A stretch of 40,562 bases of DNA from Lautropia sp. SCN 69-89. GTDB taxonomy: Bacteria > Pseudomonadota > Gammaproteobacteria > Burkholderiales > Burkholderiaceae_E. Position numbers and translations under genes: made by a program. This document shows, in pieces, positions 12,054-21,807 of this stretch. Numbering within the stretch: position 1 is the stretch's first letter; each line of letters starts with the position of its first letter. Below the pieces are notes generated by a model. It was not told the DNA's origin and made no database searches. It was given only the letters and a program-made list of their open reading frames with translations. Location: NCBI GenBank assembly GCA_001724855.1, contig MEED01000029.1, forward strand, positions 1 through 40,562, read 5' to 3'.

Positions 12054-12358
12054 TGGGCAAGCTGCTGTTCTGGCTGGCGCTGGTGGCGCTCGCGTTCCTG
12101 GCGATGAAGCTGGCCGCGATCAGTCAGCGCAAGCGCGAGGCGGCGCAGCGGGAAGGCGCTGCGCCCGGTGCGCAGCCGACCGGAGCGCGCTCCGGCGCCA
12201 GTGCGCGGCGCGCAGGCGAGCTGGCCGGCGAGATGATGGTCCAGTGCGAGCACTGCGGCGTGTTCCTGCCGGCTTCCGACGCGTTCGTCGACGGCGGGCA
12301 CAGTTTTTGCGATCGGGCGCACCGCGACGCCCATCGGGCGCGGCAGCCTCGTCGATGA
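12053..12358 (+). CDS. PP0621-family small membrane-anchored zinc-ribbon-like protein
   Basis: Small protein of 101 residues: an N-terminal membrane helix (LLFWLALVALAFLAMKLA), a basic and Ala/Gly-rich linker, and a C-terminal metal-binding-like motif MVQCEHCGVFLP followed by Cys and His residues (HSFCDRAHRDAHR). This is the layout of the PP0621 family, of unknown function. ATG 12053 overlaps the ccsA-like stop by one base, and its stop overlaps the pilS start by four bases (ATGA). The frame is open upstream, but that part overlaps the ccsA-like gene in another frame. It is probably translationally coupled with both neighbours. Confidence 0.85.
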   Translation: MGKLLFWLALVALAFLAMKLAAISQRKREAAQREGAAPGAQPTGARSGASARRAGELAGEMMVQCEHCGVFLPASDAFVDGGHSFCDRAHRDAHRARQPRR

Positions 12359-13995
12359 GCGGCGGCCGCGCCCCGGTTTCGATCCCGGATCCCGCGGCCG
12401 CTCCTGCCGACTCGTATCGCGCGGCCCTGCGCTGGCTGGCGGCCAGCCGGGTCGCGGTCGCGCTGACGCTGCTCGCGTTCGTGCCGCTGCAGGATGCCGG
12501 TCGCTTCGCGGCCGAACTCGGCGACCCGGTCTGGTTCGAACGGGTCGTCGTCGTCTACCTGCTGGCCGCGATCCTCTACCTGTCGACGCTGCACCGGTTC
12601 TACCGTCACTTCGACGCGATGCTGGCGGTGCACGCGCTGACCGACCTGGTCGCGCTCACGGCGCTGATGCACGCGGCGGGCGGGCTGCGCAGCGGCGTGG
12701 TCGTGCTGCTGATCGCGGCCCTGGCGGGAGCGGCGGTCGTCTCGACGCGGCGCATGGCGGCATCGTTCGCAGCCGCGGCCACGCTGCTGGTGCTCGCCGA
12801 AGCGGCCTGGCCGATGCTGCGCGGCGCCGGCGAGGCCGGGATGACGATGACCGCGGGCCTGGTTGGCATTGCCTGTTTCGCGACCGCGATGACGGTGAAC
12901 TGGCTCGCGATCCGGCTGCACGCGCAGGAGGAGATCGCACGGCGCCGCGGCGAGGACCTGCGCCGCCAGCTGGCGGTCACCTCGCAGGTGGTCGCCGAAT
13001 TGCAGCAGGGGGTGCTGGTCGTCGGCGCCGACGGCGAGGTCACGACGATGAACCCGGCCGCGCGCACGCTGCTCGGCATCGGGGCCCAGCCGCCGTCGCT
13101 GGCGGCGGGCGCGCCGCCGGCCGGCGGTGCGACCTGGACGTCGTTGCGGCGCGCGTATGCGCGCTGGCGGGAAGGCGGCAGCGCGGCGCATGACGAAACC
13201 GAGCTGAGCCTGCCCGCACCCGGCGGCGGCACGGTGCGCATCCGGCTGCGCTTCATGGGGGGCGACGGCAACGGTGACGTGGTGGTGATCCTCGAGGACC
13301 AGCGCCTGGTCGAGGATCGCGCGCAGCAACTCAAGCTCGCTTCGATGGGCAGGTTGTCGGCGTCGATCGCGCACGAGGTGCGCAACCCGCTGGCGGCGAT
13401 CCGCCATGCCAACAGCCTGCTCGCCGAGCGCATCGACGAGCCCGCGCTCGCGCGGCTGGCCCGCATCGTCGAGGACAACACGGTCCGCATCGACCGGATC
13501 GTCGAGGACGTGCTGTCGATCGCCCGTCGCGAGCGCGCGGCCGACGAGTCGATCGACCTGCGGGCCTTCCTGAAGGGCTTCCTCGCGGAATTCGTCGTCG
13601 CGTCGGGCGCCGACCCGCGGCGCATTGCGGTGCGGATCGAGACCGACCGGCCGATCCGCTTCGATTCGAACCACCTGCGGCAGGTGCTGCTGAACCTGCT
13701 GGGCAACGCGTTGCGCTACGCGACCGGCGCCGAAGGCGCGGTCATGATCGGCTGGCGCGAGCGCGAGCCCCATCGATTAGAATTGACCGTCGCCGACGAC
13801 GGGTCCGGCCTGCCCCCCGAAATGCTGGAACACGCTTTCGAACCCTTTTTCACGACCGACAGCCGCGGCACCGGCCTCGGCCTGTACCTGGCGCGCGAGT
13901 TGTGCAGCGCGAACGACGCGACGATCCGCTACGAGACGGCCGCGCCGTCCGGGCGCTATCGCAGCGCGTTCGTCATCGAGCCGAAAAGGGGCTAG
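12355..13995 (+). CDS. pilS: Sensor histidine kinase PilS
   Basis: Inner-membrane sensor kinase, 546 residues. The N-terminal third has about six hydrophobic helices (residues 25-190). A PAS-like domain follows (VVAELQQGVLVVGADGEV). The HisKA domain has the phosphoacceptor His340 in SIAHEVRNPLAAIRH, and the ATPase domain has NLLGNALRYA (N box), ADDGSGLPP (G1) and GTGLGLYLARELC (G2). PilS controls type IV pilin transcription through PilR, the next gene. ATG 12355 overlaps the preceding stop by four bases; more upstream ATGs lie within the PP0621-like gene. No pilin gene is in the window. Confidence 0.92.
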   Translation: MSGGRAPVSIPDPAAAPADSYRAALRWLAASRVAVALTLLAFVPLQDAGRFAAELGDPVWFERVVVVYLLAAILYLSTLHRFYRHFDAMLAVHALTDLVALTALMHAAGGLRSGVVVLLIAALAGAAVVSTRRMAASFAAAATLLVLAEAAWPMLRGAGEAGMTMTAGLVGIACFATAMTVNWLAIRLHAQEEIARRRGEDLRRQLAVTSQVVAELQQGVLVVGADGEVTTMNPAARTLLGIGAQPPSLAAGAPPAGGATWTSLRRAYARWREGGSAAHDETELSLPAPGGGTVRIRLRFMGGDGNGDVVVILEDQRLVEDRAQQLKLASMGRLSASIAHEVRNPLAAIRHANSLLAERIDEPALARLARIVEDNTVRIDRIVEDVLSIARRERAADESIDLRAFLKGFLAEFVVASGADPRRIAVRIETDRPIRFDSNHLRQVLLNLLGNALRYATGAEGAVMIGWREREPHRLELTVADDGSGLPPEMLEHAFEPFFTTDSRGTGLGLYLARELCSANDATIRYETAAPSGRYRSAFVIEPKRG

Positions 13996-13998
13996 CGC

Positions 13999-15483
13999 GT
14001 GCCGGCCACCGACCCCGTCGATCCGGCGCGCATGCCCGACGCCCGCGTTGCCGGCCGCCCGCCGCGCGTGCTGGTGGTCGACGACGAGGCCGATCTGCGC
14101 GAACTGCTCGAACTCACGCTGGTCGGAATGGGGCTCGACGTCGATTGCGCGGGAAGCATCGCCGAAGCCGGCAGCCTGCTCGAGCGCCAGGCCTACGCGC
14201 TTTGCCTCACCGACATGCGCCTGCCCGACGGCGACGGCCTCGGGCTGGTGGCGACGATCAATCGCCGCTTTGCGCAGACGCCGGTGGCGGTGATCACCGC
14301 CTATGGCAGCGCCGAGAATGCGGTCGCCGCGCTGAAGGCGGGCGCTTTCGACTACCTCGCCAAGCCGGTGGCGCTCGACGCGCTGCGCAGCCTGGTGCGC
14401 TCGGCGATCCAGCTCCCGGCCCAGCAACCGGCCGCGCACGCAGCGGCCGCACCCGATCCGGCCTGGCAACTGCTGGGCGAGTCGGCGGCGATGCAGGAAG
14501 TGCGTGCGCAGATCCAGCGGCTGGCGCGCAGCATGGCGCCGGTGTCGATCGCCGGCGAGTCCGGTTCGGGCAAGGAACTCGCCGCGCGCCTGATCCACCT
14601 GTCGGGGCCGCGCGCCGCGCAGCCGTTCGTCGCGGTCAACTGCGGAGCCATTCCCGAGGCGCTGATGGAGGCCGAGTTCTTCGGCCACCGCAAGGGGGCG
14701 TTCACCGGCGCCGACCACGACCGCGAAGGCTTCTTCCAGGCAGCCAGCGGCGGCACGCTGTTCCTCGACGAGGTGGCCGACCTGCCGCTGGCGATGCAGG
14801 TGAAACTGCTGCGCGCCATCCAGGAGAAGCGCGTTCGCAAGGTGGGCGCCACCATCGAGGAAGCGGTCGACGCACGCATCATCAGCGCCACCCACCAGGA
14901 CCTCGCGCAATGCGTCGCGGCGGGCCGCTTCCGCCAGGATCTCTACTACCGGCTCAACGTGATCGACCTGAAGCTGCCCGCGTTGCGCGAGCGTCTCGAA
15001 GACATCCCGGTGCTCGCCGAAGCGATCCTCGCGCGGCTCGCCCGGCGCGCGGGCATGGGGCAGGCGCCGCGGCTCGCGTCGGTCACGCTGCGCTACCTGC
15101 AGAGCTACCGCTTCCCGGGTAACGTGCGCGAGCTCGAGAACATGCTCGAACGTGCGCTCGCCTTCTCCAACGGCGAGGTGCTCAACGTCGAAGACCTCGG
15201 ATTGAAGCCCGCGGTCTCCGATGTCGACGAGAACGAGCGTGCCGAACCGGCCACCGAGGCCGACCCGCCGCCCGCCACGGCCCATGCGGCCGAGCGCCGC
15301 CCGGTGCGCGTCTCCGAAGACGGCGTTCCCGAGTCTCTGCCCGATTACCTCGACCAGGTCGAGCGCGACGCGATCCAGCGCGCGCTCGACAAGACGCGCT
15401 ACAACCGCACCGCGGCGGCACGGCTGCTCGGCATCACGTTTCGCGCGCTGCGCTACCGGATGCAGCGCCTCGGGCTGAACTAG
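13999..15483 (+). CDS. pilR: Sigma-54-dependent response regulator PilR
   Basis: NtrC-type activator, 494 residues. The receiver domain (about 24-135) has phosphoacceptor Asp72 in TDMRLPDGDG. The AAA+ domain has Walker A GESGSGKE (186-193) and the sigma-54-contacting GAFTGA loop (233-238). A Fis-type helix-turn-helix sits at the C-terminus (NRTAAARLLGITFRALRYRM). It activates sigma-54 promoters, classically pilA, when phosphorylated by PilS. The start is GTG 13999, three bases after the pilS stop; ATG 14032 is a possible alternative that keeps the receiver domain. Two sigma-54 promoters occur in this window (1240, 2049), but PEP-CTERM genes are normally linked to PrsK/PrsR, so a PilR link is speculation. 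Confidence 0.93.
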   Translation: MPATDPVDPARMPDARVAGRPPRVLVVDDEADLRELLELTLVGMGLDVDCAGSIAEAGSLLERQAYALCLTDMRLPDGDGLGLVATINRRFAQTPVAVITAYGSAENAVAALKAGAFDYLAKPVALDALRSLVRSAIQLPAQQPAAHAAAAPDPAWQLLGESAAMQEVRAQIQRLARSMAPVSIAGESGSGKELAARLIHLSGPRAAQPFVAVNCGAIPEALMEAEFFGHRKGAFTGADHDREGFFQAASGGTLFLDEVADLPLAMQVKLLRAIQEKRVRKVGATIEEAVDARIISATHQDLAQCVAAGRFRQDLYYRLNVIDLKLPALRERLEDIPVLAEAILARLARRAGMGQAPRLASVTLRYLQSYRFPGNVRELENMLERALAFSNGEVLNVEDLGLKPAVSDVDENERAEPATEADPPPATAHAAERRPVRVSEDGVPESLPDYLDQVERDAIQRALDKTRYNRTAAARLLGITFRALRYRMQRLGLN

Positions 15484-16040
15484 TGCCGGCCGCGCCGGGC
15501 TGGATCGCCGGCGCCCGGCGCGCGCCTTCGCCGAACTTCGACGCACGCCCGGCCGGTGTGGCGATCGACCTGCTGGTGGTGCACCACATCAGCCTGCCGC
15601 CGGGGCGATTCAGCGGCGATGCGATCGAGCAGCTGTTCACCAACCGCCTCGATCCTCGTGGCGACCCGTCGTTCGACACGCTGCGCGACCTGCGCGTCTC
15701 GGCGCACTTCCTGATCAGGCGCCGTGGGGAGTTGCTGCAGTTCGTCGCCACCGACGATCGTGCATGGCACGCGGGCGCGTCGCGCTTCATGGGCCGCGAG
15801 CGCTGCAACGACTTCTCGATCGGCATCGAGCTCGAGGGCGATGGAGAGCATCGCTTCACCGAGCCGCAATATCGTCGACTCGCGAGGCTGATCGAGCTGC
15901 TGCGCGCGCGGTATCCGTTGCGCTGGATCGCGGGGCACAGCGACATTGCGCCGGGGCGCAAGCACGATCCGGGGGCGTTCTTCGACTGGGAGCGCGTACT
16001 GGCGTTGCCCGAGGCGGGCGGGCTCGTGCGGCCGTACTGA
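15483..16040 (+). CDS. ampD: AmpD 1,6-anhydro-N-acetylmuramyl-L-alanine amidase
   Basis: Cytoplasmic zinc amidase of 185 residues that cleaves the muramyl-L-alanine bond of anhydro-muropeptides during cell-wall recycling, which also keeps AmpR-type beta-lactamase induction low. Zinc ligands follow the AmpD pattern: His34 (LVVHHISLP), His152 (GHSDIAPGRK) and Asp162 (HDPG). Glu116 (IGIELEG) and Lys160 fit the catalytic positions. The start is GTG 15483, whose G is the last base of the pilR stop codon (TAGTG), implying coupling. Together with mpl at 30413 it supplies two steps of peptidoglycan recycling in this window. Confidence 0.95.
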   Translation: MPAAPGWIAGARRAPSPNFDARPAGVAIDLLVVHHISLPPGRFSGDAIEQLFTNRLDPRGDPSFDTLRDLRVSAHFLIRRRGELLQFVATDDRAWHAGASRFMGRERCNDFSIGIELEGDGEHRFTEPQYRRLARLIELLRARYPLRWIAGHSDIAPGRKHDPGAFFDWERVLALPEAGGLVRPY

Positions 16041-16375: not shown

Positions 16376-19300
16376 ATGACATGGGTGGCCGAAAACGCGC
16401 AGCGGACTCCGATCGACCCATCGCCGCAATTTTCGGTGGCCGGGCAGGCCGCTGCAACGATGTCTTCCGCGCGCGCCGACTGCAAGGTGATTCGCCGCAA
16501 CGGTGCGGTGGTCGGATTCGAGCCCTCGAAGATCTCGATCGCGATGACCAAGGCGTTTCTCGCCGTCAACGGCGGGCAGGGCGCCGCGTCGGCGCGCGTG
16601 CGCGAACTGGTCGAGCAGCTCACGCAGTCGGTGGTCGCGGCGCTGCTGCGCGGCAAGCCCGGCGGCGCGACCTTCCACGTCGAGGACATCCAGGATCACG
16701 TCGAGCTTGCGCTGATGCGCTCGGGCGAGCACGAGGTGGCGCGCGCCTACGTGCTCTACCGTGAGCGCCGTGCCCAGGAGCGGGCGGCGAAGCTGCGCGA
16801 GCGCAACGAGGCCGTGCGGCCCGCGCTGCACGTGGTGGCCGACGGCGTGCGCAAGCCGCTCGACCTCGAGGCGCTGCGCGCGCTCGTCGAGTCGGCCTGC
16901 GAAGGGCTGGGCGAGGTCGTCTCGGCCGACGCAGTGCTGGGCGAGACGGTGAAGAACCTCTACGACGGGGTTCCGATCGAGGAGGTGCACAAGTCGGCGA
17001 TCCTCTCGGCGCGCGCGCTGATCGAGAAGGACCCCGCCTACAGCCAGGTCACCGCGCGCCTGCTGCTGCACACGGTGCGCCGCGAAGTGCTCGGCGAAGA
17101 AGTGCCGCAGGCCGCGATGGCCGGGCGCTACGCCGAATACTTCCCCGGCTTCGTGCGCCGCGGCGTCGACGCCGGGCTGCTCGATCCCGCGTTGCTGCAG
17201 TTCGACCTGAAGCGGCTGGGCGCAGCGCTGGCGGCCGGGCGAGACCTGCAATTCGGCTACCTCGGCCTGCAGACGCTCTACGACCGCTACTTCCTGCATG
17301 TGGGCGACCGGCGCATCGAGTTGCCGCAGGCGTTCTTCATGCGGGTGGCGATGGGGCTGGCACTGCGCGAGATCGACCGCGAAGCGCGCGCGATCGAGTT
17401 CTACGAGCTGCTGTCGAAGTTCGACTTCATGAGCTCGACGCCGACGCTGTTCAATTCGGGGACCCAGCGCTCGCAGCTGTCGTCGTGCTACCTCACCACC
17501 GTTTCCGATGACCTCGACGGGATCTTCGAGGCGATCAGGGAGAACGCTCTGCTGGCCAAGTACGCCGGCGGACTGGGCAACGACTGGACGCCGGTGCGCG
17601 CGCTCGGCGCGCACATCCGCGGCACCAACGGCAAGAGCCAGGGCGTCGTGCCGTTCCTGAAGGTGGTCAACGACACTGCGGTCGCAGTGAACCAGTGTTT
17701 TGCGCCCGACACCGGGGTGCACACGCAGGCGGGCGTGCGCGCGATTCGCGATGTCGCGCCGGGCGACCTGGTGCTCGGCATCGACGGCGAATATCGTGAA
17801 GTCACGCAACGAATGGTCTACAACCAGACCGACCCGATGGTCGAGGTCCGGGTAAAGCATGCGATCGAGCCGCTGCGCGTGACCGCTGGCCATCCTGTCT
17901 GGGCGATCCGCGGCGTGCCTCTCGAGCAGAGCGTCGAGCGCACGATGGCCTGGCTCGAACGCGGCAAGCTTGCGCCTGCCTGGGTCGATGCGGGAATGCT
18001 CGCACGCGGCGACTACGTCGCGCAGGTCGTCCCTCAGGAGGTCGTTCCGGTGGCGGGCTTCGACGAGGACGACGCACGGATGTACGGGATCCTGCTCGGC
18101 GACGGCCATCTGTCGAAGGGCGGGCGGCAATTCGGGGTCTCGGGCAATCCGAAGCGCGACGCGCATCTGGTCTTCGTGCGCAGCTATCTCGATCGTCGCG
18201 GCATTCACTACTGGGAAACCGGCCGCGGCGAGAGCTATTGCCAGATTCACTGGTCGGCAGGCCTGGGGGTGCGGCGTGACGCGACCACCGGCCGCATTGC
18301 CGGCTCGATCGGCGCGTCGATGCCGTTCACCCGTGACGACCTCTACGCTGCCGACGGCAGCAAGGCCATCGCTGCCCGTTTCGCTCACCTGCCGCTCGCG
18401 CAGGCGCTGCGCATCGTGCAGGGCCTGGTCGAAACCGACGGCAACGTCTCGCGCGGCAAGGAGATCAGCGTCACGAGCGGCTCGCGCGCGTTGGTCGAGG
18501 GCTTGCGCTACCAGTTGCTGCGCCTGGGCGTTCCGACCGCGGGCCAGCATCGCGAGCGCGCCAACGGGCATTGCGGGAAACGCACGGACGGCAGCCGCGT
18601 CCGCTTCGACGGGGTGACGCGGTGCTGGGACCTGCGCATCCCGGCGGTCACGGAGATCGCGACGCTGGTCGGGGCGAAGCCGCTCACGAAGCGCAACTGG
18701 CTGCGCGTGGGTCGGCACCTGTTTTCACGGGTTCGCTCGGTAAGGCCGATCGAGCCCGCGCCGTTCGTCGTCGACCTGAAGGTCGACGGGGTGCGTTCGT
18801 ACATGACGACCAGCGCATTGGCGCACAACGGCGGCAAGCGCAAGGGCGCGGTCTGTGCCTACCTCGAGACCTGGCATCTGGACATCGAGGAGTTCCTCGA
18901 GCTGCGCAAGAACACCGGCGACGACCGGCGGCGCACGCACGACATGAACACCGCCAACTGGATTCCCGACCTCTTCATGAAGCGGGTGATGGAGAACGGC
19001 GAGTGGACGCTGTTCTCGCCGTCGGACTGCCCCGACCTCCACGACCTGTACGGCAAGGCCTTCGAGGCGGCCTACCTGCGCCACGAAGCGCGCGCAGCCA
19101 GCGGCGAACTGAAGCTGTTCAGGAAGGTGCCTGCCGTGCAGCTGTGGCGGCGGATGCTGTCGATGCTCTTCGAAACCGGGCATCCGTGGATCACCTTCAA
19201 GGACGCCTGCAACCTGCGCTCGCCGCAGCAGCACGTCGGCGTGGTGCACAGCTCGAACCTGTGCACCGAGATCACGCTGAACACCAGCGATACCGAGATC

Positions 19301-20389
19301 GCGGTCTGCAACCTGGGCTCGGTCAACCTGGCCGCGCATATGCGCGAGGAAGACGGGCGCTTCACGCTCGACCACGAGAAACTGCGGCGCACCATCCGAA
19401 CCGCGATGCGCATGCTCGACAACGTGGTCGACGTCAACTACTACGCGGTCGGCAAGGCGCGCAACTCCAACCTGCGGCATCGGCCCGTGGGTCTGGGCAT
19501 CATGGGCTTCCAGGATTGCCTGCACCTGATGCGCACGCCGTTCGCCAGCGCCGAGGCGGTCGAGTTCGCCGATCGCTCGATGGAAGCGGTCTGCTACCAC
19601 GCGTACTGGGCGTCCACCGAACTGGCCGAGGAGCGCGGCCGGTATTCGAGCTTCGGCGGTTCGCTCTGGGACCGCGGCATCCTGCCGCACGACACGCTGA
19701 AGCTGCTGGCCGAGGAGCGCGGCGGTTACCTCGAGGCCGACGCTTCGGAAAGCCTCGACTGGGAGGCGTTGCGCGAGCGCATCCGCCAGCACGGGATGCG
19801 CAACTCGAACTGCGTGGCGATCGCGCCCACGGCGACGATCTCGAACATCATCGGCGTGTCGGCCTGCATCGAGCCCACCTACCAGAACCTCTACGTCAAG
19901 TCGAACCTGTCGGGCGAGTTCACGGTGGTCAACGACTACCTGGTGCGCGACCTGAAAAAGCTCGGCCTGTGGGACGAGGTGATGATCGCCGACCTCAAGT
20001 TCTTCGACGGCTCGCTGGCGAAGATCGATCGCATTCCGGCCGAACTCCGCGCGATCTACGCGACCGCGTTCGAAGTCGACCCGAGCTGGCTGGTCGAGTG
20101 CGCAGCGCGTCGCCAGAAGTGGATCGACCAGGCGCAGTCACTGAACATCTACATGGCCGGCGCATCGGGGCGCAAGCTGCACGACACCTACACGCTGGCC
20201 TGGCTGCGCGGACTCAAGACCACCTATTACCTGCGCACGCTCGGCGCGACCAGCGCCGAGAAATCCACCACCGACAAGATCGGTCAACTGAACGCGGTGT
20301 CGGCCGACGGCGCGATGAGCGCGGGCTTCTCGTATGCGGCGCCGAAGGCCTGCGCAATCGACGATCCCGACTGCGAGGCATGCCAGTGA
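16376..20389 (+). CDS. nrdA: Class Ia ribonucleoside-diphosphate reductase alpha subunit, intein-containing precursor
   Basis: Catalytic subunit that reduces ribonucleoside diphosphates to deoxyribonucleotides, using the radical from NrdB. The 1337-residue precursor contains a 378-residue intein (441-818); the joined exteins are 959 residues, normal for this NrdA type. N-terminal ATP-cone allosteric domain (CKVIRRNGAVVGFEPSKIS), first redox Cys in QLSSCYLTT, then after the intein the active-site NLCTEI (radical Cys), PTATISNIIG, and the C-terminal redox pair Cys1333/Cys1336 (DCEACQ). Both exteins are intact with no frameshift. ATG 16376 follows GGAGG by 8 bases. The intein splits the segment VNDTAVAVNQ/GGKRKGAVCAYLE between Gln and Gly. 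nrdB follows 215 bases later with its own candidate promoter. Confidence 0.96.
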   Translation: MTWVAENAQRTPIDPSPQFSVAGQAAATMSSARADCKVIRRNGAVVGFEPSKISIAMTKAFLAVNGGQGAASARVRELVEQLTQSVVAALLRGKPGGATFHVEDIQDHVELALMRSGEHEVARAYVLYRERRAQERAAKLRERNEAVRPALHVVADGVRKPLDLEALRALVESACEGLGEVVSADAVLGETVKNLYDGVPIEEVHKSAILSARALIEKDPAYSQVTARLLLHTVRREVLGEEVPQAAMAGRYAEYFPGFVRRGVDAGLLDPALLQFDLKRLGAALAAGRDLQFGYLGLQTLYDRYFLHVGDRRIELPQAFFMRVAMGLALREIDREARAIEFYELLSKFDFMSSTPTLFNSGTQRSQLSSCYLTTVSDDLDGIFEAIRENALLAKYAGGLGNDWTPVRALGAHIRGTNGKSQGVVPFLKVVNDTAVAVNQCFAPDTGVHTQAGVRAIRDVAPGDLVLGIDGEYREVTQRMVYNQTDPMVEVRVKHAIEPLRVTAGHPVWAIRGVPLEQSVERTMAWLERGKLAPAWVDAGMLARGDYVAQVVPQEVVPVAGFDEDDARMYGILLGDGHLSKGGRQFGVSGNPKRDAHLVFVRSYLDRRGIHYWETGRGESYCQIHWSAGLGVRRDATTGRIAGSIGASMPFTRDDLYAADGSKAIAARFAHLPLAQALRIVQGLVETDGNVSRGKEISVTSGSRALVEGLRYQLLRLGVPTAGQHRERANGHCGKRTDGSRVRFDGVTRCWDLRIPAVTEIATLVGAKPLTKRNWLRVGRHLFSRVRSVRPIEPAPFVVDLKVDGVRSYMTTSALAHNGGKRKGAVCAYLETWHLDIEEFLELRKNTGDDRRRTHDMNTANWIPDLFMKRVMENGEWTLFSPSDCPDLHDLYGKAFEAAYLRHEARAASGELKLFRKVPAVQLWRRMLSMLFETGHPWITFKDACNLRSPQQHVGVVHSSNLCTEITLNTSDTEIAVCNLGSVNLAAHMREEDGRFTLDHEKLRRTIRTAMRMLDNVVDVNYYAVGKARNSNLRHRPVGLGIMGFQDCLHLMRTPFASAEAVEFADRSMEAVCYHAYWASTELAEERGRYSSFGGSLWDRGILPHDTLKLLAEERGGYLEADASESLDWEALRERIRQHGMRNSNCVAIAPTATISNIIGVSACIEPTYQNLYVKSNLSGEFTVVNDYLVRDLKKLGLWDEVMIADLKFFDGSLAKIDRIPAELRAIYATAFEVDPSWLVECAARRQKWIDQAQSLNIYMAGASGRKLHDTYTLAWLRGLKTTYYLRTLGATSAEKSTTDKIGQLNAVSADGAMSAGFSYAAPKACAIDDPDCEACQ
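17696..18829 (+). mobile_element. LAGLIDADG intein inside NrdA with Gly at the +1 position
   Basis: In-frame protein-splicing element of 378 residues (NrdA residues 441-818). Block A starts with Cys1 (CFAPDTGV) and continues with IRDVAPGDLVLGIDG. Block B is RVTAGHPVW with Thr63 and His66. The homing endonuclease has both LAGLIDADG helices: YGILLGDGHLS (Asp136) and VQGLVETDGNVS (Asp248). Blocks F and G are PFVVDLKVDGVRSYM and TSALAHN, ending in His377-Asn378. The next residue, first of the C-extein, is Gly (GGKRKGA), so the usual +1 Cys/Ser/Thr nucleophile is missing. Removing the insert restores the expected NrdA sequence. Boundaries are therefore well fixed; splicing ability is uncertain. 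It resembles A-type bacterial intein-like domains in lacking the +1 nucleophile, but carries an apparently intact endonuclease. Confidence 0.93.
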
Positions 20390-20604: not shown

Positions 20605-21807
20605 ATGCTGTCCTGGGACGAACCCATTTCCGCCGCGCCGGTTCGGCCGGTGCCAACCAGAACTCCGGGCCTTCCGGTCGATGCTGCATCTGCACCGGCC
20701 ATCGCGGAAATCGCCCTCTCGCCAGTGGCCTTCTCGCAGGCCGCCTCCGACGTACGCCGCCATGGCCGTTCGCAGTCCTCGCAGAGCACGCGCCGCGTGC
20801 GCGTCGAGGACAAGCGGATCATCAATGGCGGCGCCGACGTGAACCAGCTGGTGCCGTTCAAGTACAAGTGGGCCTGGGACAAGTACCTCGCGACCTGCGC
20901 AAACCACTGGATGCCGCAGGAAATCGCGATGAGCCGCGACATCGCCCTGTGGAAGAATCCCGCGGGGCTCACCGAGGACGAACGTCGCCTCGTCAAGCGC
21001 AACCTCGGCTTCTTCGTCACCGCCGATTCGCTCGCCGCGAACAACATCGTCCTCGGCACCTATCGCCACATCACCGCGCCCGAATGCCGGCAGTTCCTGC
21101 TGCGCCAGGCGTTCGAGGAGGCGATCCACACGCACGCGTACCAGTACATCGTCGAGTCGCTCGGGCTCGACGAAGGCGAGATCTTCAATGCGTACCACGA
21201 GATCGAGTCGATCCGTGCAAAAGACGAATTCCTGATCCCGTTCATCGACACGCTGACCGATCCGGCTTTCGTCACCGGCACGCCGGAGAACGACCGGAAG
21301 CTGCTGCGCTCGCTGATCGTGTTCGCGTGCCTGATGGAAGGGCTGTTCTTCTACGTCGGCTTCGTGCAGATCCTCGCGCTCGGGCGCCAGAACAAGATGA
21401 CCGGCGCCGCCGAGCAGTACCAGTACATCCTGCGCGACGAGTCGATGCACTGCAATTTCGGCATCGACCTGATCAACCAGATCAAGCTCGAGAACCCGCA
21501 CCTGTGGACGCCGCAGTTCCGCGACGAGGTGCGCGACCTGTTCCACCGCGCGGTCGAGCTCGAGTACGCGTACGCCGAAGACACGATGCCGCGCGGGGTG
21601 CTCGGCCTGAACGCGCCGATGTTCAAGGGCTACCTGCGCTTCGTCGCCAATCGGCGCGCGCAGCAGATCGGTCTGGACCCGCTGTTCCCCCAGGAAGAGA
21701 ACCCCTTCCCGTGGATGAGCGAGATGATCGACCTGAAGAAAGAACGCAATTTCTTCGAGACCCGCGTGATCGAGTACCAGACCGGCGGCGCGCTGGCCTG
21801 GGACTGA
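20605..21807 (+). CDS. nrdB: Class Ia ribonucleoside-diphosphate reductase beta subunit
   Basis: Di-iron tyrosyl-radical subunit, 400 residues, that generates the radical used by NrdA. Iron-ligand regions are recognisable: helix [23 protein letters not shown] (Glu and His), [10 protein letters not shown], and [11 protein letters not shown] long, poorly conserved N-terminal extension (about 75 residues, Pro/Ala/Arg-rich) precedes the conserved [21 protein letters not shown] 20605 has only a weak purine stretch (AAGCGAGA) upstream. An in-frame ATG at 20761, with no obvious better ribosome-binding site, is an alternative. A strong terminator follows at 21941. Confidence 0.95.

What the first reader, a model, noticed from the sequence alone, without database searches (positions are those of the whole stretch)
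17696..18829. NrdA intein with Gly where the +1 nucleophile should be
Sequence shows a complete 378-residue intein (Cys1, TxxH, His377-Asn378) inserted between Gln and Gly of VNDTAVAVNQ/GGKRKGA. The first C-extein residue is Gly, not Cys/Ser/Thr. Canonical splicing needs that side chain for transesterification. A-type bacterial intein-like (BIL) domains lack this nucleophile and are reported to give some splicing plus N- and C-cleavage. Here the host is an apparently essential enzyme, so splicing must work by a non-standard route, or two cleaved halves must reassemble. I recall an Azotobacter vinelandii RNR intein labelled BIL-like, which may share this site; unverified.
Basis: partly seen in the sequence, partly recalled or inferred. 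Interest (0 to 1): 0.85.

Follow-up and report, generated by a model that had tools for sequence, protein, structure and literature searches.

The report
Intein missing its usual splicing residue
A self-removing protein segment sits inside an enzyme that makes DNA building blocks; it lacks a residue thought necessary for clean removal, yet the same arrangement is kept in many distantly related bacteria, some with no other copy of the enzyme found, which suggests that it splices by a less familiar chemical route.

Summary
Window 17696-18829 is a complete 378-residue Hint + LAGLIDADG intein (Cys1, TxxH, block F Asp, His-Asn) placed exactly between Gln and Gly of class I NrdA; +1 is Gly. It is neither an error nor a relic. 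All 83 distinct relatives examined (five phyla by record title, Azotobacter vinelandii included) have Cys1 and Gly+1; 80 of 83 end in His-Asn. The intein is under purifying selection, shows horizontal transfer, and sits in allosteric loop 2, where the host residue is Gly. In three draft genomes scored 99-100% complete (one is Thiofilum flexile DSM 14609) this NrdA is the only ribonucleotide reductase detected, so working enzyme very probably comes from it. Best explanation: a mobile homing intein with A-type-BIL-like chemistry: thioester at Cys1, Asn cyclisation, then attack of the freed Gly amine on the thioester, perhaps helped by the NrdA barrel. Splicing itself was not shown; cleavage with reassembly is the main rival, and BILs tested by others mostly cleave. 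Seven IMG/VR contigs carry uninterrupted Gly+1 inteins at this site; two carry apparent natural split inteins there. New variant of a known kind: the chemistry is precedented; I found no description of this family in the open papers searched.

The parts
16376..17695 (+). NrdA N-extein (440 aa: ATP cones, all-alpha domain, start of barrel), ending ...DTAVAVNQ
17696..18829 (+). 378-aa intein, Hint splicing domain with an inserted LAGLIDADG endonuclease
   Evidence: AlphaFold2 mean pLDDT 89.9; Foldseek: TliVMA and PI-SceI inteins
17696..17698 (+). Cys1 (acyl-shift nucleophile), 84 of 84 rows of A2 (83 relatives and the window)
17882..17893 (+). Block B T63-x-x-H66 (T 83 of 84, H 84 of 84)
18101..18103 (+). 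LAGLIDADG motif 1 Asp136 (82 of 84)
18437..18439 (+). LAGLIDADG motif 2 Asp248 (83 of 84)
18773..18775 (+). Block F Asp360 (taken as F:4), 84 of 84
18824..18829 (+). His377-Asn378 (81 and 84 of 84), Asn cyclisation
18830..18832 (+). +1 residue Gly (84 of 84), first residue of the C-extein, in RNR loop 2
18830..20389 (+). NrdA C-extein (519 aa + stop), starting GGKRKGA
20605..21807 (+). nrdB, small subunit, 400 aa, uninterrupted

Best explanation
A working, mobile (homing) intein that splices without a +1 side-chain nucleophile. Inferred steps: (1) Cys1, helped by T63, H66 and D360, takes the Gln-1 carbonyl in a thioester; (2) transesterification cannot occur; (3) Asn378 cyclises with help of His377 and frees the alpha-amine of Gly+1; (4) that unhindered amine, still next to the thioester, attacks it and forms the Gln-Gly bond directly. 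I propose that the NrdA barrel, which both extein halves build together, holds the two ends close and so favours ligation over hydrolysis. Shown here: anatomy, conservation, selection, signs of mobility, hosts with a single detected RNR. Inferred: every chemical step and the role of the host fold.
For: Residues for steps 1 and 3 conserved in 84 rows (C1 84, T63 83, H66 84, D360 84, H377 81, N378 84). Gly+1 in 88 of 88 (83 distinct). Purifying selection: omega of the Hint parts against the five nearest relatives 0.07-0.23. No in-frame stop in the intein in 88 of 88 (the scan favours full-length members). Sole detected RNR in G074, G151, G305 (completeness 100, 99, 100) and in nine further genomes of unstated completeness, of 30 that I chose to search. 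Among 71 named loci with a complete C-extein, two carry a second intein there, and it has Cys+1 (L048) or Thr+1 (L050). Mechanism precedent proposed for A-type BILs: PMC4031507 passage.
Against: No biochemical or proteomic data. A-type BILs are reported to give mostly cleavage, one review says they cannot ligate (PMC7765530 passage), and the Magnetospirillum BIL did not splice until its Tyr+1 was changed to Cys. 13 of the 30 genomes searched have a second RNR gene, the window's host has one too, and so does A. vinelandii. The sole-RNR genomes with stated completeness are drafts of about 70 contigs. Model coordinates could not be read, so active-site distances are untested. Conservation of C1/HN would also be expected if only cleavage were selected. 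The split viral intein L114 starts with Ser, for which ester aminolysis would be harder.
Confidence: 0.7

Rival explanations
1. The intein only cleaves at both ends; the two NrdA fragments assemble without a peptide bond into a working enzyme.
For: Phage Aeh1 NrdA is made from two genes separated by an inserted endonuclease and is described as still functional (PMC3653736 passage). Two IMG/VR contigs carry NrdA as two genes broken at this very site. BILs mostly cleave.
Against: The break lies inside loop 2, between Gln288 and Arg293 (yeast/human numbers), described as crucial for substrate choice; cleavage would leave a carboxylate and an amine there. The full splicing anatomy is kept, and the split viral genes still code for both intein halves.
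Confidence: 0.15
2. Splicing passes through a branched intermediate on another nucleophile, in the intein or the extein, in place of the +1 side chain (class-3-like or new).
For: T371 and Y369 are nearly invariant close to the C-terminus (83 and 84 of 84), as is Lys+3 (83 of 84).
Against: The class 3 signature is absent: F:4 is Asp in 84 of 84, the residue at B:12 is never Trp and that at G:5 never Thr. No intein Cys other than Cys1 reaches 76 of 84. Lys+3 is a host residue.
Confidence: 0.08
3. The insert is inactive or decaying in this host; NrdA is dispensable because a class II enzyme, NrdJ, is present.
For: Own genome has an uninterrupted NrdJ.
Against: Intact frame, all catalytic residues, low omega for intein and exteins, intact nrdB, relatives with no second RNR detected.
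Confidence: 0.06
4. Ordinary class 1 intein with a misplaced junction or a sequencing error at +1.
For: None found.
Against: Boundary fixed by empty alleles and by zero slide; Gly+1 in 88 of 88 loci.
Confidence: 0.01

Closest known systems
A-type bacterial intein-like (BIL) domains, e.g. the BIL of PDB 2LWY
   Same: C-terminal His-Asn, no +1 nucleophile; proposed thioester + Asn cyclisation + amine attack (PMC4031507 passage). Weak match of family profile A1 to 2LWY over profile positions 2-75, E 0.0028.
   Different: BILs are described in non-conserved, variable proteins with mostly cleavage; here a LAGLIDADG endonuclease, a conserved site in RNR, empty alleles and signs of horizontal spread. 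The gp41-1 intein matches profile A1 slightly better (E 7.4e-5).
Class 1 homing inteins (PI-SceI/VMA, TliVMA)
   Same: Fold (7qsu E 6.2e-19), blocks A, B, F, G, LAGLIDADG domain, conserved insertion site.
   Different: Class 1 uses Cys/Ser/Thr at +1; here Gly in every member examined.
NrdA intein of Azotobacter (Avin_33290, Achr_15980)
   Same: The A. vinelandii CA member is in this family, same site, Gly+1; a NrdA intein in both species is noted in PMC4465626.
Aeh1 phage NrdA-a/NrdA-b (genes in pieces)
   Same: Interrupted NrdA described as functional (PMC3653736 passage).
   Different: An inserted mobE endonuclease gene and no self-splicing element according to that text; break position not checked here.

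Membership tests
Class 1 intein | Cys/Ser at position 1, block B TxxH, C-terminal Asn | tested here: met
   C1 84/84, T63 83/84, H66 84/84, N378 84/84
Class 1 intein | Cys, Ser or Thr at +1 | tested here: not met
   Gly in 88 of 88 loci (83 distinct) and in the window
Class 2 intein | No nucleophile at position 1, attack by +1 Cys | tested here: not met
   Cys1 present, +1 is Gly
Class 3 intein | No nucleophile at position 1, Cys at F:4 (WCT motif; the positions of W and T are recalled) | tested here: not met
   C1 present; F:4 Asp 84/84; B:12 F/L/V/I/M; G:5 A/V/N
A-type BIL | C-terminal His-Asn without +1 nucleophile | tested here: met
   HN in 85 of 88 (80 of 83 distinct), +1 Gly in 88 of 88
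A-type BIL | Sits in non-conserved, variable host proteins | tested here: not met
   Loop 2 of NrdA; exact empty-site DNA pattern in 170 of 369 class genomes
A-type BIL | Gives some splicing plus N- and C-cleavage | not testable with these tools
   needs expression
LAGLIDADG homing intein | Two LAGLIDADG motifs with acidic residues | tested here: met
   Pfam LAGLIDADG_3; D136 82/84, D248 83/84; fold
LAGLIDADG homing intein | Empty alleles and horizontal transfer | tested here: met
   Empty sites; intein/extein identity mismatch, clearest in L035, 67-70% versus 44-46% in the eight most extreme pairs
LAGLIDADG homing intein | Cuts the empty site | not testable with these tools
   needs a cleavage assay
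Class I NrdA | ATP cone, all-alpha and barrel domains, nrdB partner | tested here: met

The most novel reading that the evidence does not exclude
A widespread natural class of homing inteins has dispensed with transesterification altogether: at a site where the host residue is fixed as Gly, they splice an essential enzyme efficiently by aminolysis of the Cys1 thioester, with the host barrel acting as template. The same site in viral NrdA appears to have been invaded more than once, also by natural split inteins (one with Ser1), so natural trans-splicing without a +1 nucleophile exists.
Probability: 0.45. Interest if true: 0.8.

Novelty: new variant of a known kind. Interest (0 to 1): 0.62.

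Why it matters
It has been written that inteins are inserted before Cys, Ser or Thr and that this residue is required (PMC2814812 passage). A selected, mobile family at Gly, in some hosts with no other ribonucleotide reductase detected, makes directly testable whether splicing can be efficient without it and whether the host fold replaces the missing step. If it can, ligation at Gly without a Cys/Ser/Thr scar would be useful for protein engineering.

Tried and rejected
Misplaced junction and sequencing error: rejected. Class 2 and class 3 chemistry: rejected on signature residues. Phage collection: no tblastn match to the intein, though IMG/VR contigs hold relatives. PDB by single sequence: no hit; by profile A1, weak hits, gp41-1 (7.4e-5) before 2LWY (0.0028). 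HN|GGKRKGA DNA pattern over 398 phylum genomes: 1 match, the own genome, so the family is rare in random sampling; in the class search 9 of 369 genomes had a close member and 7 further genomes had only weak matches. Of the eight weak-match loci (L010-L017) I read the intein end of five, L013-L017, all Cys+1. Relatives of the two split viral inteins: none beyond the contigs themselves. Of the 21 stretches that the viral DNA pattern found, only eight lie in nrdA (L109, L114, L115, L118, L120, L121, L123, L126; L115, L118, L120, L121 are the contigs of L101, L104, L103, L105); the rest are chance hits. Active-site geometry: model coordinates are not exposed; VIA-align library absent. The scan kept 80 of 102 relatives, so decayed members may be under-counted. 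Selection values against L026 (omega 0.30-0.33 in the intein, 0.34-0.44 in the exteins) are less reliable because synonymous change is high.

Literature: ten searches ran, open-licence PMC only. Dassa 2009 (fractured genes), Friedrich 2007, Dassa 2004 and Aranko 2013 were looked up and are not held; Amitai 2003 was not looked up; all are known to me here only as cited by others. Papers were read as found passages, none in full.

Full report
WHAT IS THERE. The ORF at 16376-20389 (+) encodes a class I ribonucleotide reductase large subunit interrupted by a 378-residue insert at 17696-18829. The N- and C-parts match PF03477, PF00317 and PF02867; the insert matches LAGLIDADG_3 and Hint_2. Compared with P. 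aeruginosa NrdA (5im3) the protein breaks exactly after Gln442 and resumes with the next residue, Gly. The junction cannot be slid by one base, and the joined flank is identical to the empty site AACCAGGGCGGCAAGCGCAAGGGCGC of two genomes of the same order, G107 and G224. nrdB follows at 20605-21807.

THE FAMILY. A search of 369 genomes of the class gave 16 with a match, 9 of them (own included) close and full-length. A scan of a collection of 84,980 species genomes gave 102 relatives, of which the best 80 were kept, among them Azotobacter vinelandii CA, Halomonas, Thiothrix, Thiofilum, purple sulfur bacteria, Chlamydiota, Verrucomicrobiota, Nocardiopsis, Actinosynnema and an Omnitrophota MAG. 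By record title the 80 are Pseudomonadota 64, Chlamydiota 7, Actinomycetota 4, Verrucomicrobiota 3, Omnitrophota 1, unassigned 1; one of the four Actinomycetota (L025) is probably a binning error. All four Gly codons are used (63/12/8/5 of 88). In alignment A2 (83 relatives and the window) the residues that drive the N-terminal acyl shift and the Asn cyclisation are almost invariant: C1 84, T63 83, H66 84, D360 84, H377 81, N378 84 of 84; the endonuclease aspartates D136 82 and D248 83. 74 of 378 intein columns reach 83 of 84, so these residues lie in the best-conserved fifth, though relatedness inflates all such counts. None of 88 inteins has an in-frame stop, but the scan favours full-length members.

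SELECTION AND MOBILITY. Against the five nearest relatives (L021-L025) omega is 0.07-0.13 for Hint residues 1-115, 0.12-0.17 for residues 116-290 (endonuclease part), 0.17-0.23 for residues 291-378, and 0.05-0.15 for the exteins. The tree of 68 inteins (13 of the 80 named loci left out for short exteins; quick method) places phyla among each other: Pseudomonadota need 4 changes (3 forced by starred branches), Chlamydiota 3 (only 1 forced, so one origin is not ruled out), the two Nocardiopsis 1. Intein identity exceeds extein identity in 48 of 56 Pseudomonadota-Verrucomicrobiota, 262 of 392 Chlamydiota-Pseudomonadota and 36 of 56 Omnitrophota-Pseudomonadota pairs, which points to transfer; but only in 19 of 112 Actinomycetota-Pseudomonadota, 1 of 7 Chlamydiota-Verrucomicrobiota, 2 of 14 Actinomycetota-Chlamydiota and 0 of 7 Omnitrophota-Chlamydiota pairs, and in 0 of 21 within Chlamydiota and 153 of 1540 within Pseudomonadota (the window counted by me as Pseudomonadota, L041 left out). 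The clearest case is L035 (Fulvimonas soli): the eight most extreme pairs all involve it, intein 67-70% against extein 44-46%. Empty sites are common: an exact DNA pattern for NQGGKRKGA occurs in 170 of 369 class genomes, and G358 carries one occupied and one empty nrdA. These are the habits of a homing intein.

WHY GLY. The site is inside loop 2 of the enzyme: the Gln before the break is Gln288 of human R1 (alignment, a chain offset of 20 allowed for), loop 2 is given as residues 285-295, and Gln288 and Arg293 as crucial for substrate choice (PMC3483043 passages). The residue after the break is Gly in the P. aeruginosa and human proteins as well. The host thus dictates +1. Among 71 named loci with a complete C-extein, two (L048, L050) have a second intein there, and that one has the usual Cys+1 or Thr+1.

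DOES IT YIELD WORKING ENZYME? The window's own genome has a second RNR, a class II NrdJ on C15, without intein, and no NrdD match, so this host alone proves nothing. I searched 30 genomes of the family for PF02867 (the eight unnamed relatives and 22 of the 80 named loci, my choice): 14 have only this one gene, 13 have a second RNR gene, and G056, G097 and G383 show broken or extra pieces and are not counted. Of the 14, 12 have no match to class III NrdD (G375 and G378 have it), and in none does the monomeric class II model reach its cut-off; its weak matches lie in the NrdA (or, in the own genome, also NrdJ) genes. Three of the 12 have stated completeness: G074 100%, G151 99%, G305 100%, each a draft of about 70 contigs. 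In these organisms the interrupted gene very probably supplies active NrdA, so either ligation or functional reassembly happens.

HOW IT MOST LIKELY WORKS. With Cys1 and the Asn machinery kept and no +1 side chain, the route proposed for A-type BILs fits: thioester at Cys1, Asn cyclisation, and attack of the freed alpha-amine on the thioester (PMC4031507). Against it, BILs studied so far gave mostly cleavage, one review says that A-type BILs cannot ligate, and the Magnetospirillum BIL spliced only after Tyr+1 was made Cys. I suggest, as inference, that here Gly is the least hindered amine possible and that the two halves of the NrdA barrel hold the ends together. Reassembly of cleaved halves remains possible, since phage Aeh1 NrdA is described as working in two pieces, but here the nick would lie in the loop that governs specificity.

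VIRAL RELATIVES. IMG/VR contigs hold the same arrangement: L101-L104, L109, L123 and L126 are uninterrupted inteins before GG[KR]R.GA; L109 is reduced to about 258 residues and L103, by eye, lacks the block F stretch. L105 and L114 are different: NrdA is encoded by two adjacent ORFs broken at this site, the first ending in an N-intein and the second starting with a C-intein that ends ...VHN|GGKR. AAGGA, a ribosome-binding-like sequence, precedes the second start codon in both. They look like natural split inteins lacking the +1 nucleophile; L114 even has Ser1. The viral searches fixed HN|GG or NGGKRKGA, so Gly there is partly a selection effect, and that the site was invaded more than once is judged by eye, without a tree.

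FILING. By chemistry it resembles A-type BILs; by lifestyle and fold it is a class 1-like homing intein. It fails the +1 test of class 1, the position-1 test of class 2, the F:4 test of class 3 and the host-site trait of BILs. I therefore call it a new variant of a known kind. Azotobacter NrdA inteins are in print, and an InBase label for one as BIL is recalled, not seen. I found no description of the Gly+1 family, its loop 2 position, its sole-RNR hosts or its split forms in ten searches of open-licence papers; four key papers looked up are not held, so they may contain part of this.

Noticed in passing
L105:3167-6135 (IMG/VR UViG_3300008448_000002): NrdA encoded as two adjacent ORFs with N- and C-intein halves at the same loop 2 site; Cys1, Gly+1: apparently a natural split intein without +1 nucleophile.
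   Followed up: partly
L114:9402-11784 (IMG/VR UViG_3300035635_000049): Second, dissimilar split NrdA intein at the same site, with Ser1 and Gly+1; the fetched locus ends inside the C-extein.
   Followed up: partly
L048 (Thiofilum flexile) and L050: NrdA carries a second intein downstream, with canonical Cys+1 (L048) or Thr+1 (L050).
   Followed up: partly
L090, L093, L094: Penultimate His replaced by Ser (L090) or Arg (L093, L094) in three purple sulfur bacteria.
   Followed up: no
L025: Record titled Actinomycetes MAG holds a nrdA/intein 86-87% identical to the window's, whose other near relatives are Burkholderiaceae; probably a binning error.
   Followed up: no
G375:C1:2201790-2203586: NrdD match with one in-frame TGA inside; nature not examined.
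   Followed up: no
G056:C6:188939-190292 and G383:C9:154473-157195: NrdA C-extein frame is broken near its 3' end (G056) or shortly after loop 2 (G383); real or assembly error not decided.
   Followed up: no
window 12244-16040: PilS-like kinase (12244-13995) and sigma-54 response regulator (13999-15483) upstream of nrdA, then an Amidase_2 protein at 15483-16040.
   Followed up: no
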